In this document: piece by piece, positions 10,016 through 33,342 of the stretch
How positions within the stretch are numbered: the stretch's first letter is position 1
Layout of the letters: each line of letters starts with the position of its first letter
Source: Streptococcus mitis subsp. hohhotensis
GTDB lineage: Bacteria > Bacillota > Bacilli > Lactobacillales > Streptococcaceae
Direction: 5' to 3'
DNA length: 64,000 bases
NCBI RefSeq assembly: GCF_000722775.1
Contig: NZ_JPFZ01000007.1
Location: 2,501 to 66,500, forward strand
Notes under the pieces: generated by a model
Seen by the model: the letters and a program-made list of their open reading frames with translations, nothing else
Told to the model about the DNA's origin: nothing
Database searches by the model: none
Position numbers and translations under genes: made by a program

Positions 10016-10032
10016 GCTTGCCCGCATAGTTG
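10016..10032 (+). repeat. 17-bp repeat GCTTGCCCGCATAGTTG, copy 1
   Basis: Identical to 15706-15722 and nearly identical, inverted, to 51791-51814. This copy is in the integrase leader, 24 bases upstream of its start codon. Confidence 0.6.
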
Positions 10033-10080
10033 AAAAGGTGTAGAACTTATGATAAACTATAGTTGTATTTTTTTATCATC

Positions 10081-10157
10081 CTTTCCATTGCTTGCTTGAT
10101 GGAAAGTTTAATCCTCACACTCAGAGTCGCCAAACTTTGCGAGTGTGGGGATTTTTT
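10081..10157. terminator. Two hairpins between integrase and membrane protein
   Basis: A perfect 8-bp inverted repeat CTTTCCAT/ATGGAAAG (10081-10106) is followed by a 10-bp stem CCTCACACTC/GAGTGTGGGG (10113-10150) with six T residues on the plus strand. The second is a good rightward terminator. On the minus strand it lacks a strong U-tract, so leftward read-through into int is possible. Confidence 0.6.
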
Positions 10158-10167
10158 GTTGTCTTTT

Positions 10168-10880: not shown

Positions 10881-11315
10881 TTAGTATAAATCTAACCCAA
10901 GAACTTCTTTTATCTTGTCTAATAGTTTTTTATGGTCGTTTGTATCTAGCTTGTAAGCTGGTCTGTAAACTTTATCATATAACTCTTTTCCTGCTGCATC
11001 TAGCATTACTTGTCCATCACTATCAGTCTTTTTCTTTGTTTTATAGACGATTTTCCGTTTGTCTATTTCTTGGATTTTTCGGACATAAGCATAGGCTTTG
11101 GGCTTGGACGGAGTGTTTTGATATTTACTATTTTCAATCGTGATACCACCACGATATTTCTTTCCTGATTTTTTACCAGTTAAAGGTGCTACTAGTAGTG
11201 TTCCATCGGCTTTGTCAGGAGTTGTTAAGATGATAGCGTAGTGTTTTCCGTAAAATTCATTCCCACCTTTTTGTGGGAAGTTGATTAGATAAACTTCGCC
11301 TTGTTGAAATTTCAT
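10881..11315 (-). CDS. PemK/MazF-like protein (type II toxin family)
   Basis: 144 residues from the ATG at 11315 (MKFQQGEVYLINFPQKGG), preceded by GGAG at good spacing. A longer open frame to 11594 has no RBS. The GEVYLINFP start, HYAIILTTPD and LLVAPLTGKK segments fit the PemK/MazF fold of ribosome-independent mRNA interferases. C-terminal residues are Lys/Asp-rich. No obvious antitoxin gene adjoins it: upstream is the CI repressor and downstream the membrane protein. It could be a non-toxic homologue, or its control may be at the promoter and leader. Confidence 0.65.
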   Translation of the reverse strand: MKFQQGEVYLINFPQKGGNEFYGKHYAIILTTPDKADGTLLVAPLTGKKSGKKYRGGITIENSKYQNTPSKPKAYAYVRKIQEIDKRKIVYKTKKKTDSDGQVMLDAAGKELYDKVYRPAYKLDTNDHKKLLDKIKEVLGLDLY

Positions 11316-11338
11316 ATAATGCTCCAGATAATAAAATA

Positions 11339-11429
11339 AGGTGTACCTCTTAGAAGTACACCAGACCGTTTTGTCCTTGACGAACAAGGCTTTATAAGTA
11401 AATATCGTATCCTTGACGAACAAGGCTTT
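11339..11429 (-). promoter_or_regulatory. Structured leader of the PemK-like gene with duplicated hairpins
   Basis: A 20-base sequence containing the inverted repeat CCTTG-N5-CAAGG occurs twice, perfectly, 36 bases apart (11374-11393 and 11410-11429). A third hairpin GGTGTAC/GTACACC lies at 11339-11362. All fall between the promoter and the start codon, so the transcript would begin with three hairpins. Confidence 0.55.
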
Positions 11430-11439
11430 TGACATTATT

Positions 11440-11468
11440 AGTGTACTTCTTTTTTTATTTTTTGTCAA
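11440..11468 (-). promoter_or_regulatory. Promoter of the PemK-like gene
   Basis: On the minus strand: TTGACA (11468-11463), 17-base A-rich spacer, TACACT (11445-11440). Palindrome copy B ends two bases upstream of the -35. Confidence 0.6.
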
Positions 11469-11469
11469 G

Positions 11470-11496
11470 TAATTGTTTCCAAAATGGAAACAGTTG
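11470..11496 (-). repeat. 27-bp palindrome, copy B
   Basis: Same TTTCCATTTTGGAAA core as copies A and C, 3 bases after the CI stop codon and directly upstream of the PemK-like promoter. Confidence 0.6.
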
Positions 11497-11499
11497 GTT

Positions 11500-12264
11500 T
11501 TATTCCCCTCTATACACCCCGACAACTGCATAGATTTTGATGTGTGTGTCTTCGGCTGGTGGGAAGTCAAGGATGATATCTTCATACTTGTCATTGAGTG
11601 ACACTAGGCGTAAGCGTCCGTTTTCGGTATATATCTTCTTGAAGTAAGAACGGTCTCCGTATGCGATAACTGCTAGGTTTCCGTTGTAGGTAGTCAGTCC
11701 TTTGTCTACTAAATAGAGAATATCTCCGTCTTGGTAGTCAGGTTGCATGGAGTCTCCGCTTACCCTGGTCGCAATATCGTGGCGTGGTGGTTGCTCGTCA
11801 ACCTCTATAGTCTCTCTGTCTGTATCGTCGTAACCGAATCCATAGTTGAATCCGCTAGCTGCAGCCGTCTCAGATACAACCTCAACTTGGTACAAGTCGA
11901 TAACTTTCTCCGATACTTCGTTTATCTTCGCTTTTCTTCGTTTCTCTTGTTCGTCACGTAATTTTTCAGCGTATGTGATAACTTTTCTTTGTCCAGGTGG
12001 TTCTAGTTTGTCGTAGATGGATTGGATGGGGGAAGTGGTAGGAGTGGTTTCAATAGATGAAGGTTTGGCTAGGTCAAATAGATATTGAGGAGAAACTTCT
12101 AAAGCCTGAGCGTATATTCTAATATCCTTTTCATCTAACTGTCTATTTCCGTTTTCATGGTTAGAAATTGTATTTTGCTTAAAACCTGTCAGCTCGGCAA
12201 GTTTTTTTTGAGTTAATTTCTTGGATTTTCTTACTTCTTTAATTGAGCTACCTAGTATATTCAT
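11500..12264 (-). CDS. CI-like prophage repressor with LexA/S24 self-cleavage domain
   Basis: 254 residues. Residues about 5-65 form an XRE helix-turn-helix (IKEVRKSKKLTQKKLAELTGFKQ). The C-terminal S24 peptidase domain has a likely cleavage region near AAASG, the serine nucleophile in SGDSMQPDYQDGD and the lysine in YFKKIY. It should hold the lysogenic state and be inactivated by RecA-stimulated self-cleavage during SOS. The ATG at 12264 is preferred over the TTG at 12273 because AAAGGAG would abut the TTG. It is divergent from the early promoter. Confidence 0.9.
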   Translation of the reverse strand: MNILGSSIKEVRKSKKLTQKKLAELTGFKQNTISNHENGNRQLDEKDIRIYAQALEVSPQYLFDLAKPSSIETTPTTSPIQSIYDKLEPPGQRKVITYAEKLRDEQEKRRKAKINEVSEKVIDLYQVEVVSETAAASGFNYGFGYDDTDRETIEVDEQPPRHDIATRVSGDSMQPDYQDGDILYLVDKGLTTYNGNLAVIAYGDRSYFKKIYTENGRLRLVSLNDKYEDIILDFPPAEDTHIKIYAVVGVYRGE

Positions 12265-25702: not shown

Positions 25703-25774
25703 GTTAATGACTACAAAAAATAAATCAGAAAATTTATTTCTAATTAACACGCAAGGTAGTAGTCGCCTTGCAGT

Positions 25775-25852
25775 TGGAACGTAGCTCAGTTGGTGGAGCG
25801 ATATGACTATAAAGGGTCTGAAACGTAGGCAGGTTCGAGTCCTGTCGTTCCA
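25775..25852 (+). ncRNA. tRNA-like element 3 (78 nt)
   Basis: Perfect acceptor TGGAACG/CGTTCCA, canonical TA at positions 8-9, perfect D arm GCTC-AGTTGGTG-GAGC and T arm GCAGG-TTCGAGT-CCTGT. The 29 bases in between form no standard anticodon stem-loop. The most tRNA-like member of the array. Confidence 0.55.
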
Positions 25853-25857
25853 ATTGT

Positions 25858-29428: not shown

Positions 29429-30962
29429 AGAAGAGAAAATTGCCTTTATCGAATCACTTGACGACCTCAGCCGAGAAGAGAAAGACAGATTGCTATACGA
29501 GCTGGCTCAGATTGACGACCTCGGCGAGATAATAGACTACATCGATAATTTATACCACAGAACACTAAAACGCATTACAGGGCGTTTAGAGGCGTTTGAG
29601 AGGGTATCTAAAAATCGTAGCGACTCATTACCATTTTATCTGTTATCCCTGACTAAGGCTGACCAATTAAAAACTAAGCAAGAGATTGCTGGTTTTGTTA
29701 AGAAACATCCTGATTTAACAGAGTGGTCAAGGTCAATAAAAGTCAAAACAAATGCAGATGCCTTGTTTGCTGGTGTTGAGATGGATATCGCTGAAATGAC
29801 TGGCAAAATCAACAAGCGAATAGAAACACATCTCAAACAAACCTACCAAGAAACCTACTTAAATCGTGCTTACAACTACCATAAGCAGACCAAAAGAGAA
29901 CCGAATTTCAAGCCTGAGCGTCTAGAAGAAGAGTATCTTCAAAAGGCAATCAACGAAAACTTCAAAGGTAAGCGGTTCTCTGAGCGTGTTTGGGGCAGCA
30001 ATATGGATGAATTGGTTAGTAGAGTAGAATCGCTTGTAACCAATGATTTAAACCGAGGCTATCCGATAGACCAGTCTAGTAAGCTTCTAGCAATTGAGTT
30101 CGAACGTGCTCGTAATCGTGCAGTGACTGTTTTGCAGACGGAAACGAACGGAATTCAGGCTCAGGCAACATTAGATGAATACCAAGACGACAATATCAAG
30201 AAGTACAGGTATCTAGCGACCTTAGAAGTTCACACATGCCCTATTTGTGGAGAGTTAGACGGCAAGGTATTTCCTGTTAAGGATGCAGAAAAGGGTGTGA
30301 ATTATCCTACTATGCACCCTCACTGTCGATGTACGACGGTTCCTGCCTTAGAAAAAGGTGGGAAACGCTATGCAAGAGATATTGAAACAGGTAAAGGCTA
30401 TGAGGTGGAAAGTGGTCAGACCTTCAAGGATTGGCGAAAGCAGCAGCTTGATAAGTATGGTCAGACTGCCATCAAAGACAAGCTACAAGCTGAACGATTG
30501 GAAAGGGACAGAGTCCGCAGAACCAAGGAGCAGTTCATCGCTTATAGGCAGGTTTTAGGCTCTCAAAATATGCCCAAAACATTTGCAGGCTTCTATAATT
30601 TGAAGTATAATGATGTTGAGGGATACAAGGAACTAAAAGACCGCATCAGATGGGCAAAGTCCAAGTTTCCTACTGAGAAATCTTTAAATGGACATTTCAA
30701 AAGTCATGGGAAAGAGTTCGGAGCGGAAAGCCCTGAAGAATATCAACAATTGGCTAGAAATTTATTATCTTCTGTTGTCTCTAAAAATATTATAGGTTAT
30801 GATACTGGAGAAAGAAGAGTTCGATTTAATCGAGAAACGGGGACAATTGCGATTGGAAAAAGAAATGCCTCAGGAAAAGCGAGAATAACAACTATGTTTA
30901 AGCCAGATGATGGAGAGGAATATTACCATGACGACTATAAAAAAGAATATAATAATGATTGA
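29409..30962 (+). CDS. Minor head protein (SPP1 gp7/MuF) with C-terminal toxin-like domain
   Basis: 517 residues, longer than a plain MuF head protein. Residues about 1-340 form the head-morphogenesis domain, with the zinc-binding-like HTCPICGELDGKVF and MHPHCRCTTVP motifs. After a linker, residues about 395-517 form an added domain (WAKSKFPTEKSLNGHFKSHG ... RRVRFNRETGTIAIG ... TMFKPDDGEEYYHDDY) resembling the phage-borne barnase/EndoU/colicin/RelE-like (PBECR) nuclease tails. The CPCC gene overlapping its 3' end fits an immunity partner. Confidence 0.75.
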   Translation: MSRKLNKEEKIAFIESLDDLSREEKDRLLYELAQIDDLGEIIDYIDNLYHRTLKRITGRLEAFERVSKNRSDSLPFYLLSLTKADQLKTKQEIAGFVKKHPDLTEWSRSIKVKTNADALFAGVEMDIAEMTGKINKRIETHLKQTYQETYLNRAYNYHKQTKREPNFKPERLEEEYLQKAINENFKGKRFSERVWGSNMDELVSRVESLVTNDLNRGYPIDQSSKLLAIEFERARNRAVTVLQTETNGIQAQATLDEYQDDNIKKYRYLATLEVHTCPICGELDGKVFPVKDAEKGVNYPTMHPHCRCTTVPALEKGGKRYARDIETGKGYEVESGQTFKDWRKQQLDKYGQTAIKDKLQAERLERDRVRRTKEQFIAYRQVLGSQNMPKTFAGFYNLKYNDVEGYKELKDRIRWAKSKFPTEKSLNGHFKSHGKEFGAESPEEYQQLARNLLSSVVSKNIIGYDTGERRVRFNRETGTIAIGKRNASGKARITTMFKPDDGEEYYHDDYKKEYNND

Positions 30963-31134
30963 CGGATGGGAACATGTGCATTGCCCCGTATGTGGAAATT
31001 TAGTAGAAACTTATGATATTTGTGATGTTTGTCATTGGCAAAATACGGGAGCATTTAATATCGATGGCGGTCCAAATAAAATGACGCTTGCAGAGGCTAA
31101 AGAAGCTTACGCAAAAGGTTTACCGATTAGATAA
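30928..31134 (+). CDS. CPCC-type cysteine-rich protein (candidate immunity)
   Basis: 68 residues from the ATG at 30928, chosen because GGAGAGG lies 9 bases upstream. HVHCPVCGNLVETYDICDVC gives four cysteines for one zinc; the following GGPNKMTLAEAKEAYAKGL matches the CPCC-domain C-terminus. CPCC proteins are predicted immunity proteins of polymorphic toxin systems. It overlaps the toxin-tailed head gene by 35 bases, implying coupled translation. Confidence 0.7.
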   Translation: MTTIKKNIIMIDGWEHVHCPVCGNLVETYDICDVCHWQNTGAFNIDGGPNKMTLAEAKEAYAKGLPIR

Positions 31135-31137
31135 ATA

Positions 31138-31164
31138 AGCACCTAGAGAAATCTAAGTGCTTTT
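31138..31164 (+). terminator. Terminator after the CPCC gene
   Basis: GCACCTAGA-GAAA-TCTAAGTGC followed by TTTT and further T-rich sequence, 3 bases after the stop. Confidence 0.8.
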
Positions 31165-31193
31165 CTTATTTTTAATTTTTTTCAAAAAACCTC

Positions 31194-31239
31194 TTGACTT
31201 TGTTGCTACAAAGTTATATACTGACATTGTAGCAACAAA
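31194..31239 (+). promoter_or_regulatory. Promoter with 13-bp inverted-repeat operator
   Basis: TTGACT, 17-base spacer, TATACT. A perfect inverted repeat TTTGTTGCTACAA (31199-31211) and TTGTAGCAACAAA (31227-31239) brackets the -10, so a repressor dimer pair would close the promoter. The RHH protein encoded next is the natural candidate. Confidence 0.8.
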
Positions 31240-31254
31240 AAGGAGGTGAGCAAA

Positions 31255-31434
31255 TTGCTTGCACGAAAAGAACAATTCAAAGATAAGCCTAAAAATACTA
31301 TGTTGCGAGTTCGAGTTGATGACGAAACGGTTGATAAACTTGAAGAAATTGCAAAAAAAACGGATAGCACGAAATCTAGTGTTATCCGAAAGGGTATTGA
31401 CAAGTTATATCAAGAATTAAATAAACAAAAATAG
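31255..31434 (+). CDS. Ribbon-helix-helix (Arc/CopG-like) regulator
   Basis: 59 residues from the TTG at 31255, 8 bases after AGGAGG (the GTG at 31246 touches the RBS). NTMLRVRVDDETVDKLEEIA is the DNA-contacting strand plus helix A, and STKSSVIRKGIDKLYQEL helix B. It is expected to bind the inverted repeat in its own promoter. It stands upstream of the antirepressor gene, as Arc does in P22. Confidence 0.8.
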   Translation: MLARKEQFKDKPKNTMLRVRVDDETVDKLEEIAKKTDSTKSSVIRKGIDKLYQELNKQK

Positions 31435-31492
31435 CCTAGAACCCACTAACGCCAATCAGACGGTTCTAAGCTATCACCACAGAAGTGTTTCT

Positions 31493-31513
31493 GCATGAAA
31501 TATTATATCATGC
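31493..31513. promoter_or_regulatory. Inverted repeat in the leader of the 82-aa gene
   Basis: GCATGA-N9-TCATGC with TATTAT inside; possible second operator/promoter. Upstream, TAGAACC ... GGTTCTA (about 31437-31468) can form a longer stem. Confidence 0.4.
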
Positions 31514-31554
31514 TGAGACGCTCTTTTCAAGGTACACGAAGGAGTGTTTTTATT

Positions 31555-31803
31555 ATGGCAAAAATTGAACTTTTAGACAGTTACGAAGATTTACTAAACT
31601 ATGTTGAAGAAATCCGTGAGAGTATGGATTTGATTCACAATTGGCTAGCAAAAGAGCCAGATTGGGATAGTCAGTGTGACTTATATGAATTTATTGCTCA
31701 ACATAGCTCACAATTCGCTGTATTGAATCTTATCATGTACAGGCTGGATAGTCTTAAAGATGAGCATCGTACCATTATTGATAATTATATTAAAGGAGCA
31801 TAA
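31555..31803 (+). CDS. Small acidic protein between RHH and antirepressor, 82 aa
   Basis: MAKIELLDSYEDLLNYVEEI opening; ATG at 31555 after AAGGAG, the upstream extension lacks an RBS. Helical, acidic, no recognised domain. It ends 2 bases before the antirepressor start, so the two are co-translated; it may modulate the antirepressor. Confidence 0.6.
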   Translation: MAKIELLDSYEDLLNYVEEIRESMDLIHNWLAKEPDWDSQCDLYEFIAQHSSQFAVLNLIMYRLDSLKDEHRTIIDNYIKGA

Positions 31804-31805
31804 AA

Positions 31806-32564
31806 ATGGAACTACAAATTTTTAAAAATGAACAATTCGGAGAAGTAAGAACGACAGAAGTTAATCAAGAAGTTTATTTTAATTTGAAAGATTGCTGTCA
31901 GGTTTTGGAAATTAAAAATCACAACGACGCACTAAAACGGCTAAATAAGGATGGGGTCGTTACTACCGACCTCACCGACAGTCTAGGACGAACTCAACAA
32001 GCCAACTTCATCAACGAAGCTAATTTCTATAAGCTTGTTTTTCAATCTCGTAAACCAGAAGCAGAGAAATTTGCTGATTGGGTCACTAGTGAAGTTCTCC
32101 CCTCTATTCGTAAGCATGGCGCTTATATGACCGACCAAGTGGCTTATAATATCACGCACAACAAACAAGCCTTAGCAGACTTGCTCCTTATGGCTGGTAA
32201 TCAACTGAAAGAAAAAGAAGCAGTCATTAAACACTTGGAAGCTGAAAAAGCTGTACTTTCCGTTGAAAATACCATAATGAAGCCGAAAGCAGACTATTTC
32301 GATGAACTAGTAGATAGAAACTTACTGACCAGCTTCAGAGAAACGGCAAAACAATTAAAAATCAAAGAACGTAAGTTTATTGACTTCTTGATGGAGAAAA
32401 AATACATCTACCGAGATAAGAAAGGTAAGCTCCAACCAACAGCCAATAAAAACGATGGTTTGTTTGAAGTCAAGGAAACACTCAACGAAAAAACACAATG
32501 GTCTGGTACACAGACTCTCATCACCCCTAAAGGCCGTGAAACCTTTAGACTACTTTTTATCTAA
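31806..32564 (+). CDS. Phage antirepressor (Bro-N + KilAC/ANT domains)
   Basis: 252 residues. Residues about 1-105 are the Bro-N domain (MELQIFKNEQFGEVRTTEVN, FADWVTSEVLPSIRKHGAYM). About 150-250 are the ANT domain (YFDELVDRNLLTSFRETAKQ, GTQTLITPKGRETF). Antirepressors inactivate phage repressors and promote induction. Its position between head genes, far from CI, is unusual outside P22-like immI regions. Confidence 0.88.
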   Translation: MELQIFKNEQFGEVRTTEVNQEVYFNLKDCCQVLEIKNHNDALKRLNKDGVVTTDLTDSLGRTQQANFINEANFYKLVFQSRKPEAEKFADWVTSEVLPSIRKHGAYMTDQVAYNITHNKQALADLLLMAGNQLKEKEAVIKHLEAEKAVLSVENTIMKPKADYFDELVDRNLLTSFRETAKQLKIKERKFIDFLMEKKYIYRDKKGKLQPTANKNDGLFEVKETLNEKTQWSGTQTLITPKGRETFRLLFI

Positions 32565-32573
32565 TTATGCTTT

Positions 32574-32640
32574 AACCGCATCGAAATCGAGGCGGTTTTC
32601 TTATGCTCTAACCGTATGGAATCCCGTACGGTTTTCTTTT
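32574..32640 (+). terminator. Tandem terminators after the antirepressor
   Basis: AACCGC/GCGGTT with TTTTCTT (32574-32599) and AACCGTA/TACGGTT with TTTTCTTTT (32610-32640). They close the inserted regulatory cassette. Confidence 0.8.
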
Positions 32641-32760
32641 CGCCCTGGGCATGGCGTTAAAAGGTTCAAACATTGGACAAGTCCGTAGTCCTAACAAAAG
32701 CGGAGCGACTGGTGATGGAGAACACCTAAAAAGCCTAGCGTAGAGGAAAGGATTTTCAAA
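32641..32760 (+). promoter_or_regulatory. Gene-free leader before the scaffold gene
   Basis: About 120 bases with short stems (GGAC-AA-GTCC, GGTG ... CACC) and an AGGAAAGGA RBS. No clear promoter consensus was found; it may be a processed 5' leader for the very highly expressed scaffold and capsid genes. Confidence 0.35.
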
Positions 32761-33342
32761 ATGAAAAAAGAACAACTAGCAAACATCGGCTTAACTGAAG
32801 ACCAAATTTCTCAAGTCTTCGCTTTGCATGGTGCGGATATCCAAAAGTTAAAGGATGATGTGGCAAGTAAAGAAAGCGAATTAGAGAGCGTTCGTGGACA
32901 GCTGACACAACGTGACAAAGACTTGAATGATTTGAAGAAAAAAGGCGCAGATGTTGAAGATATTCAGCAAAAGCTAGCAGACTTACAAGCTAAGTACAAA
33001 CAAGATACAGAAGCGCTTGAGACGAAACTAGCAGACGAGAATAAATCTCGCTTAATCGATGCTGAATTGACAAAAGCTGGCGTTCGAGACGCAGAAATTT
33101 TTGGAAAAATCTTAAACAAAGACGAAATCTCTGTAAAAGATGGCAAATTGATTGGCTTGACTGAGCAAATCGAGGCTCAGCGTGCTAAGAGTCCATATCT
33201 CTTTAACGGGGAGAAACAAGCCCAATACACGCCAAATCAAGGCGATGGGCAAGGTGCTAATTTAGGGAATTGGGAAACTGCTATGAGCAATCTTGACTTT
33301 AACCTAACTCAATTTTTAGAACAACAAGGAGAAAATAACTAA
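32761..33342 (+). CDS. Capsid scaffold protein (GP20-like)
   Basis: 193 residues, strongly coiled-coil through about 30-100 (VASKESELESVRGQLTQRDK) and a C-terminal capsid-binding helix. Matches GP20/phage scaffolding proteins that shape the procapsid and leave. Its TAATG overlap with the capsid gene gives matched expression. Confidence 0.85.
   Translation: MKKEQLANIGLTEDQISQVFALHGADIQKLKDDVASKESELESVRGQLTQRDKDLNDLKKKGADVEDIQQKLADLQAKYKQDTEALETKLADENKSRLIDAELTKAGVRDAEIFGKILNKDEISVKDGKLIGLTEQIEAQRAKSPYLFNGEKQAQYTPNQGDGQGANLGNWETAMSNLDFNLTQFLEQQGENN

What the first reader, a model, noticed from the sequence alone, without database searches (positions are those of the whole stretch)
31138..32640. 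P22 immI-like antirepressor cassette inserted between head genes
Seen: a terminator (31138-31164), a promoter whose -10 is bracketed by a perfect 13-bp inverted repeat, an RHH (Arc/CopG-like) gene, an 82-aa acidic ORF, a Bro-N/ANT antirepressor, then two tandem terminators (32574-32640). Known: in P22 the RHH repressors Arc and Mnt control the antirepressor Ant in immI, which lies among late genes away from c2. Inference: this is a second, self-contained immunity switch acting on the CI protein 20 kb away, or on repressors of other prophages.
Basis: partly seen in the sequence, partly recalled or inferred. Interest (0 to 1): 0.72.

Follow-up and report, generated by a model that had tools for sequence, protein, structure and literature searches.

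The report
Antisense-RNA-locked phage antirepressor switch
A bacterial virus carries a small self-contained switch whose repressor-defeating protein appears to be held off twice, by a DNA-binding protein and by an antisense RNA seen here only in the sequence, and the same two-lock design recurs in related viruses and their satellites.

Summary
In detail: front terminator, promoter bracketed by a perfect 13-bp inverted repeat, RHH gene, 82-aa ORF, Bro-N/ANT antirepressor, two tandem terminators. The RHH-to-ORF82 gap (31435-31554) holds a predicted antisense-RNA gene on the minus strand: the only promoter of >=11/12 with extended -10 in 64 kb, then a ~70-nt RNA ending in a terminator hairpin with a UUGGCG loop. 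In 32 sequences its stem is 99.3% paired, with both-sided changes at 12 of 13 pairs, and the G-U bias says the antisense strand is the one selected. Downstream, two mutually exclusive mRNA hairpins suggest attenuation: the antisense RNA covers one arm of H2, freeing H3, which hides ORF82's ribosome site or ends transcription. RHH proteins and operators co-vary; RHH and antisense halves shuffle. The cassette moves among sites, related units occur in satellites and before other genes, and a Streptococcus-trained model finds it, more weakly, before antirepressors in Clostridia. It works like P22 immI (arc-sar-ant) and pMV158 copG-rnaII, but is not P22's by descent and matches no Rfam family. Transcription, repression and the CI target are untested.

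The parts
31137..31172 (+). Front terminator between the CPCC gene and the cassette
31194..31222 (+). Promoter of the RHH-ORF82-ant operon (TTGACT-17-TATACT)
31199..31239 (.). Predicted RHH operator: perfect 13-bp inverted repeat (31199-31211/31227-31239) bracketing the -10
   Evidence: operator changes with RHH type
31255..31434 (+). RHH (CopG-like) predicted autorepressor gene, TTG start; alternative GTG at 31246
   Evidence: profile of 20 such proteins matches CopG of pMV158, E 0.0034
31502..31530 (-). Predicted antisense-RNA promoter TTGAAA-17-TATAAT with extended TG; only site of >=11/12 with TG in the whole window, both strands
   Evidence: such a promoter (10-11/12, TG) in 12 of 12 cassettes
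31426..31495 (-). Predicted countertranscript (ctRNA), about 70 nt (start assumed 7 nt after the -10): short 5' hairpin, terminator hairpin with UUGGCG loop, U-run
31431..31474 (-). Terminator stem H1 of the ctRNA (12 of 13 pairs with both-sided changes); its complement is the mRNA target hairpin
31481..31524 (+). mRNA hairpin H2, predicted anti-attenuator; 5' arm overlaps the ctRNA, 3' arm overlaps H3
31515..31550 (+). mRNA hairpin H3 (31515-31527/31538-31550), predicted attenuator; 3' arm holds the ORF82 Shine-Dalgarno (31539-31544) and ends in UUUU
31555..31803 (+). ORF82, phrog_13592, function unknown; the small ORF at this place differs between relatives
31806..32564 (+). Antirepressor, Bro-N + ANT (KilAC)
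32574..32640 (+). Two tandem intrinsic terminators closing the cassette

Best explanation
A mobile, self-contained antirepressor operon under two trans-acting negative controls. (1) The RHH protein binds the inverted repeat around the -10 and represses its own operon. (2) A ~70-nt antisense RNA made from the RHH-ORF82 gap pairs, starting at its UUGGCG loop, with the leader of the same mRNA; this occupies the 5' arm of H2, frees H2's 3' arm to form H3, and so blocks ORF82 (and the antirepressor behind it) by hiding the Shine-Dalgarno and/or by premature termination. In a lysogen both locks keep the antirepressor off. When the cassette enters a cell without them, or when the RHH protein and the RNA fall, a burst of antirepressor is made and inactivates a repressor, its own or that of another prophage. 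Shown by sequence: the parts, the conservation and covariation of the RNA, RHH-operator co-variation, mobility. Inferred: transcription of the RNA, pairing, the H2/H3 switch, RHH binding, the timing and the target.
For: 12 of 12 cassettes found by DNA similarity to the cassette (not by an RNA model) keep a 114-132 bp gap with a minus-strand extended -10 promoter of 10-11/12. In the window it is the only such site of >=11/12 in 64 kb, both strands. ctRNA stem in 32 sequences: 99.3% of 416 cells paired, 12 of 13 pairs with both-sided changes, slid controls 33-43% (14 of the 32 were found without an RNA model). Non-Watson-Crick cells over 23 distinct stems: 30 C.A in the mRNA strand (= G.U in the antisense RNA) against 3 G.U, so the antisense strand looks like the selected one. 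27 of 37 predicted RNAs carry UUGGCG, 5 more UUGG. H3: 92.8% of 180 cells paired, 7 of 12 pairs with both-sided changes. H3 found in 30 of 31 distinct leaders, H2 the more stable in 27 of those 30; in several diverged members H3 is a classical terminator with UUUUU ahead of the SD. RHH-operator Mantel r 0.78. Loci fetched by the antirepressor protein alone: 22 of 79 viral and 2 of 44 genome loci carry a strong ctRNA match upstream of ant; in 9 of 9 inspected weaker matches an RHH-sized ORF ends within 10 nt of the element.
Against: No transcript data. The free leader's MFE favours H3, not H2, in 13 of 31 distinct leaders, so the switch would have to be kinetic there. In the window's branch H3 is a weak terminator (UAUUAUGG after the stem), so SD hiding may be the real mechanism. 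For H3 the number of further pair types does not exceed shuffles (265/500). The H1 hairpin folds well in the mRNA strand too (z -5.6). Models R1 and R2 contain the promoter letters and the H1 stem, so promoter and pairing among model-found loci are partly by construction. RHH and ctRNA types are also correlated (r 0.39). In 11 of 35 cassettes the script's best inverted repeat was not the one around the -10, and several RHH proteins lie below Pfam cut-offs. Many antirepressor relatives show no element: 53 of 79 viral loci have no match up to E 0.5 (a few of these are cut off just upstream of ant), and Javan173 and Javan210 have no R1 match at E 0.001.
Confidence: 0.75

Rival explanations
1. The intergenic structure is only a cis-acting mRNA leader (attenuator or RNA switch) with no antisense RNA; the minus-strand promoter is fortuitous.
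For: H1, H2 and H3 fold in the mRNA strand and H3 hides the SD.
Against: C.A versus G.U asymmetry 30:3 favours folding of the antisense strand; the minus promoter is kept in 12 of 12 cassettes, with the TG extension in 36 of 37 elements; in the window a U-run follows the H1 stem only on the antisense side.
Confidence: 0.1
2. The antisense RNA acts by directly blocking translation or by RNase III processing, as P22 sar (recalled) or pMV158 RNAII do, without an H2/H3 switch.
For: In the window's branch the SD lies within H3 and the H3 tail is a poor terminator; pMV158 RNAII acts on translation (PMC4485353, abstract and passages).
Against: The predicted 5' end of the ctRNA is about 44 nt upstream of the SD; H3 covaries, and in several diverged members H3 is a separate intrinsic terminator.
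Confidence: 0.3
3. RHH plus ORF82 is a toxin-antitoxin-like or other accessory pair, and the antirepressor is a passenger.
For: ORF82 is of unknown function and relatives occur in satellites without an annotated antirepressor behind them.
Against: The small ORF is replaced by unrelated ones in other cassettes while RHH, ctRNA and an antirepressor are kept.
Confidence: 0.07
4. The cassette is a decayed relic with no function.
For: None found; it is an insertion that splits a late operon with terminators.
Against: Intact ORFs, paired stems with compensatory changes, and recombination that keeps the parts together.
Confidence: 0.03

Closest known systems
P22 immI / ant moron (mnt, arc, sar, ant)
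   Same: RHH autorepressor, antisense RNA controlling the antirepressor, antirepressor, independent unit inserted in the late operon (PMC2629481, passages read; the place of sar in the arc-ant gap is recalled)
   Different: No Mnt; antirepressor is Bro-N+ANT; an extra variable small ORF lies between; the antisense RNA lies upstream of the SD and seems to act through a hairpin switch (sar covering the ant start is recalled); moves to many sites; Streptococcus and other Bacillota
pMV158 copG-rnaII-repB copy control
   Same: CopG RHH repressor co-transcribed with the target, a short antisense RNA ending in an intrinsic terminator that pairs just upstream of the target gene's start signals (PMC4485353 abstract and passages, PMC4387999 passages)
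   Different: Target is an antirepressor, not RepB; RNA is ~70 nt with two predicted hairpins against 48 nt with one; most loops here have a YUNR-type motif, which pMV158 is said to lack
pT181 / pIP501 countertranscript-driven attenuators
   Same: Antisense RNA predicted to prevent an anti-terminator hairpin so that a terminator forms before the gene (mechanism recalled; a pT181 anti-terminator passage of PMC3753616 seen)
   Different: Joined to an RHH repressor and to phage genes; no Rfam family matched in 31190-31600 above threshold
ColIb-P9 Inc RNA
   Same: Same 5'-UUGGCG-3' loop motif (title of a paper seen only in the reference list of PMC10724649)
   Different: Plasmid replication control with a pseudoknot target; no relation shown

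Membership tests
P22 immI | RHH autorepressor co-transcribed with ant | tested here: met
   (sequence only; repression not shown)
P22 immI | Antisense RNA gene in the RHH-to-ant gap | tested here: met
   (sequence only, no transcript)
P22 immI | Second RHH repressor (Mnt) | tested here: not met
   ORF list of the cassette shows one RHH ORF by eye; no second regulator annotated there in Javan336
P22 immI | Ant of the P22 type | tested here: not met
   Pfam up to E 1 gives Bro-N and ANT as the only families above cut-off; that P22 Ant belongs to other Pfam families is recalled
P22 immI | Antirepressor inactivates prophage repressors | not testable with these tools
   needs experiment
pMV158-type copG/ctRNA control | CopG-like RHH protein | tested here: met
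   RHH_1 above cut-off; profile A7 matches CopG 1b01 E 0.0034, with designed helical proteins at similar E-values
pMV158-type copG/ctRNA control | Operator palindrome on the promoter | tested here: met
pMV158-type copG/ctRNA control | Antisense RNA between RHH gene and target, ending in an intrinsic terminator | tested here: met
   (sequence only)
pMV158-type copG/ctRNA control | Target is a replication initiator | tested here: not met
   target is Bro-N/ANT; the gap matched no record of the plasmid collection
pT181/pIP501 attenuators | Mutually exclusive anti-terminator and terminator, switched by the antisense RNA | tested here: inconclusive
   H3 in 30 of 31, H2 more stable in 27 of 30, but free MFE takes H3 in 13 of 31
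Known Rfam family | Gathering-score match | tested here: not met
   none in the cassette gap
Bro-N/ANT phage antirepressor | Both domains above Pfam cut-off | tested here: met

The most novel reading that the evidence does not exclude
A plasmid-style copy-number circuit (CopG-like repressor plus countertranscript attenuator) has become a portable, exchangeable control unit of Bacillota phages and their satellites, with many mutually orthogonal specificities. It measures whether a cognate element is already in the cell, fires the antirepressor only on entry into an unoccupied cell, and acts as a trans-acting second immunity. A single-lock version, the ctRNA alone, controls prophage integrase genes.
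Probability: 0.4. Interest if true: 0.85.

Novelty: new variant of a known kind. Interest (0 to 1): 0.73.

Why it matters
P22 immI is a classic of phage regulation. This suggests that a dual protein-plus-RNA lock on antirepressors, with a copy-control-like logic, recurs across phages and satellites of streptococci and, by weaker evidence, of Clostridia, at places where annotation shows hypothetical proteins. It gives a concrete model for second immunity, for cross-talk between co-resident prophages and satellites, and many naturally varied repressor/operator and antisense pairs. Ten full-text searches of the held library showed, in their capped listings of titles and abstract starts, no paper describing it; most subscription journals are not in that library.

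Tried and rejected
Rfam families for the gap: only sub-threshold matches that look like chance. A plasmid source by DNA similarity: no match among 72,556 plasmids. PDB relatives of the antirepressor or of the window RHH alone: none. A wide spread of the Streptococcus-type RNA through the order and class: order sample 11 of 395 genomes in 2 of 80 genera (the two outside Streptococcus, L055 and L059, are integrase-type), class sample 5 of 398 in 2 of 145 genera (the one outside Streptococcus, G866, E 0.0055, was not inspected). These samples used stricter filters that lose weak matches. Idea that every antirepressor has the module: rejected; 53 of 79 viral loci have no R2 match up to E 0.5. Idea that the module controls antirepressors only: rejected (NUMOD4, ERF-region and unknown genes). 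Position-specific coupling to head genes: rejected. Structure prediction of ORF82 could not be done. PMC6755750 and PMC6356513 looked relevant in a listing; the passages concern other matters.

Full report
What is there. The window is a Streptococcus mitis-type prophage; 30900-32770 is 100% identical to Javan336 from S. mitis SK608. The likely RHH start is TTG 31255, five bases after an AAGGAGGTGA ribosome site.

The missed element. The 120-bp gap between the RHH gene and ORF82 is not spacer. On the minus strand it has TTGAAA-17-TATAAT with an extended TG at 31530-31502, the only site of at least 11/12 with TG on either strand of the 64-kb window. Taking a start 7 nt after the -10, the strand reads a ~70-nt RNA with a short 5' hairpin and a 13-bp stem followed by UUUUUG; the stretch 31495-31420 folds at -28.2 kcal/mol, z -4.85. 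The complementary hairpin in the mRNA also folds well (z -5.63), so folding energy alone does not choose the strand.

Conservation. In 12 of 12 cassettes gathered by DNA similarity the gap is 114-132 bp and holds a minus-strand promoter of 10-11/12 with TG. Model R1, built on 15 sequences found without an RNA model, found 23 places in 19 of 284 Streptococcus genomes; R2, the antisense-strand model built on 32, found matches in 32 of 284. Among 37 elements (34 distinct) 36 have the TG, 27 carry UUGGCG, 5 UUGG, one CGCCAA and 4 none of these. Both models include the promoter letters and the stem, and 18 of the 32 rows were found by R1, so those counts lean. Stem H1 in the 32 sequences: 99.3% of 416 cells paired, 12 of 13 pairs with both-sided changes; shuffles average 77.1%, slid versions 33-43%. 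Over 23 distinct stems (32 rows; L038 and L039 dropped) there are 260 Watson-Crick cells, 30 C.A and 3 G.U in the mRNA strand, and 6 others. C.A in one strand is G.U in the other, so selection seems to have kept the structure of the antisense RNA.

How it may work. In the mRNA two hairpins downstream compete. H2 (31481-31524) uses as its 5' arm sequence that the antisense RNA would cover; H3 (31515-31550) reuses H2's 3' arm and holds the ORF82 Shine-Dalgarno in its own 3' arm. RNAalifold on 15 sequences proposed H1, H3 and three further pairs; 17 of the 28 pairs have compensatory change. H3 alone: 92.8% of 180 cells paired, 7 of 12 pairs with both-sided changes, although further pair types do not exceed shuffles. 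Over 31 distinct leaders (of 40), H3 was found in 30, H2 was the more stable in 27 of those 30, at least 4 U follow in 22, and an SD-like motif lies in H3 in 23; but the free minimum-energy fold takes H2 in only 18. In several diverged members H3 is a clean intrinsic terminator ahead of the SD. I therefore favour countertranscript-driven attenuation, with SD hiding as the likely form in the window's branch.

The RHH lock. In 24 of 35 cassettes the best inverted repeat found by script lies around the -10; in the other 11 it was elsewhere, though in several an imperfect one is visible at that place. Over 30 cassettes (some near-identical) RHH identity and operator identity correlate (Mantel r 0.78, 0 of 5000 permutations), against 0.39 for RHH and ctRNA stem, also 0 of 5000. 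The halves recombine: window and Javan362 share the ctRNA stem with 34% identical RHH proteins; Javan190 (first unit) and Javan197 share the RHH protein with 62% identical stems. A profile of 20 RHH proteins, eight of them from the clostridial or host-unnamed loci, matches CopG of pMV158 (E 0.0034) and ORF56 (E 0.0079) in the PDB, though designed helical proteins score alike. The Javan362-type RHH has no RHH family match in Pfam up to E 0.1.

A mobile unit. The cassette lies between CPCC and scaffold genes in the window and before scaffold in MismyG, between other head genes in Javan326 and Javan166, between TerL and portal in Javan362 and Javan367, by hyaluronidase in Javan119, Javan190 and Javan197, by lysin in phi30c, and in the early region in phiJH1301-1 and Javan570. 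EJ-1 has other ORFs at the window's site. Javan190 and genome G158 have two RHH+ctRNA units in series before one antirepressor; L086 and L144 have two ctRNA matches upstream of ant.

Other clients. Of 22 elements, 21 have an RHH-like ORF upstream by eye (L044 atypical; L036 has none). Downstream are Bro-N or AntA antirepressors and a NUMOD4 protein (Pfam), an ORF of phrog_847 'anti-repressor Ant', an HTH+Bro-N-like fusion (by eye), a region with an ERF-like gene (Pfam 8.7e-5, below cut-off) and unknown genes. Of 17 loci (one, L069, repeats L042), 7 have an RHH-like ORF, 9 have no RHH and lead directly into what reads as a tyrosine integrase gene (by eye; the window's own integrase is Pfam-confirmed), and one is unclear; the integrase-type matches are weak (E 4e-4 to 0.0052). 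The window's own integrase leader has a similar hairpin with the loop in reverse orientation (R2 E 1.9 only). The same genome carries a second RHH+ctRNA unit in satellite Javan337, and 33 phage or satellite records match that satellite stretch, 12 of them over at least 80%.

Beyond Streptococcus. Starting from the antirepressor protein alone, 79 viral loci (the best 80 of 119 relatives) and 44 genome loci were fetched. R2 gives at least 84 bits in 22 of 79 and 2 of 44, each on the minus strand upstream of ant. A separate promoter scan upstream of ant gave at least 11.5 (hexamers plus 1.5 for TG) in these 24, and 9.5-10.5 in five loci without a strong match. Further matches: L087 (Lachnospiraceae, E 1.8e-6), L091 and its copy L155 (Massilioclostridium, E 9e-4 and 0.0016), L153 and L196 (E about 0.002), L095, L107, L112, L108 and L152 (E 0.01 to 0.43). 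In 9 of 9 inspected (all of these but L155; six from named Clostridia, three viral contigs without host) an RHH-sized ORF ends within 10 nt of the element, and a small ORF (8 of 9) and then an antirepressor-like gene follow (by eye). Pfam calls RHH above cut-off in 2 of these 9, weakly in four more, not in three. Three matches up to E 0.5 lie off position (L196 second match, L100, L105). Seven picked loci without a match (L154 repeats L090) show no RHH ORF upstream by eye.

Comparison with the known. P22 immI, read in passages of PMC2629481, has mnt, arc, sar and ant in a late-operon moron: same logic, but no Mnt here and a different antirepressor. pMV158 (PMC4485353 abstract and passages; PMC4387999 passages) has copG, RNAII and repB arranged alike. 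The UUGGCG loop is named in the title of a ColIb-P9 Inc RNA paper seen only in a reference list. YUNR U-turns are described as general in loop-loop antisense systems.

Meaning, inferred. Because both locks would act in trans, a lysogen should silence the antirepressor of an incoming phage of the same type, while entry into an empty cell allows a burst before the locks build up. That is second immunity with copy-control logic. The repressor attacked is unknown; the resident CI-like protein has an HTH and a Peptidase_S24 domain. Nothing here was tested in cells.

Noticed in passing
window 10030-10158: Leader of the prophage integrase gene (minus strand) has a ctRNA-like arrangement on the plus strand: TTGAAA-17-TAAACT with TG, then a terminator-like hairpin (10110-10153, -22.1 kcal/mol) with CGCCAAA in the loop; R2 E only 1.9; 46 phage records match this leader, 16 over at least 80%.
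   Followed up: partly
L085 7662-7830 (own genome, contig C8): A second RHH+ctRNA unit lies in the satellite phage Javan337 of the same genome, with a different stem and RHH type, before a phrog_23024 gene of unknown function; 33 phage and satellite records match.
   Followed up: partly
window 32675-32737: GP20-b RNA (RF03003, 52.8 bits) just upstream of the scaffold gene, right after the cassette.
   Followed up: no
window 30933-31109: The CPCC-gene region beside the cassette is 97.7% identical to DNA of satellite phages Javan325 and Javan339, so phages and satellites share it.
   Followed up: no
L020 2453-2561, L056, L060, window 10110-10153: In a few elements the loop is inverted: the antisense RNA carries CGCCAA and the mRNA carries UUGGCG, perhaps by inversion between the stem arms.
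   Followed up: no
window 10881-11594 (minus): PemK/MazF-like protein (PF02452, 3.9e-10) beside the CI gene.
   Followed up: no
L036 1501-1635: A solitary element with a strong promoter and stem lies next to a host gene that looks stomatin/prohibitin-like by eye, without any RHH gene upstream.
   Followed up: no
window 25774-25854: Possible tRNA of unclear anticodon ahead of the terminase genes (ARAGORN; Rfam RF00005 40.1 bits).
   Followed up: no
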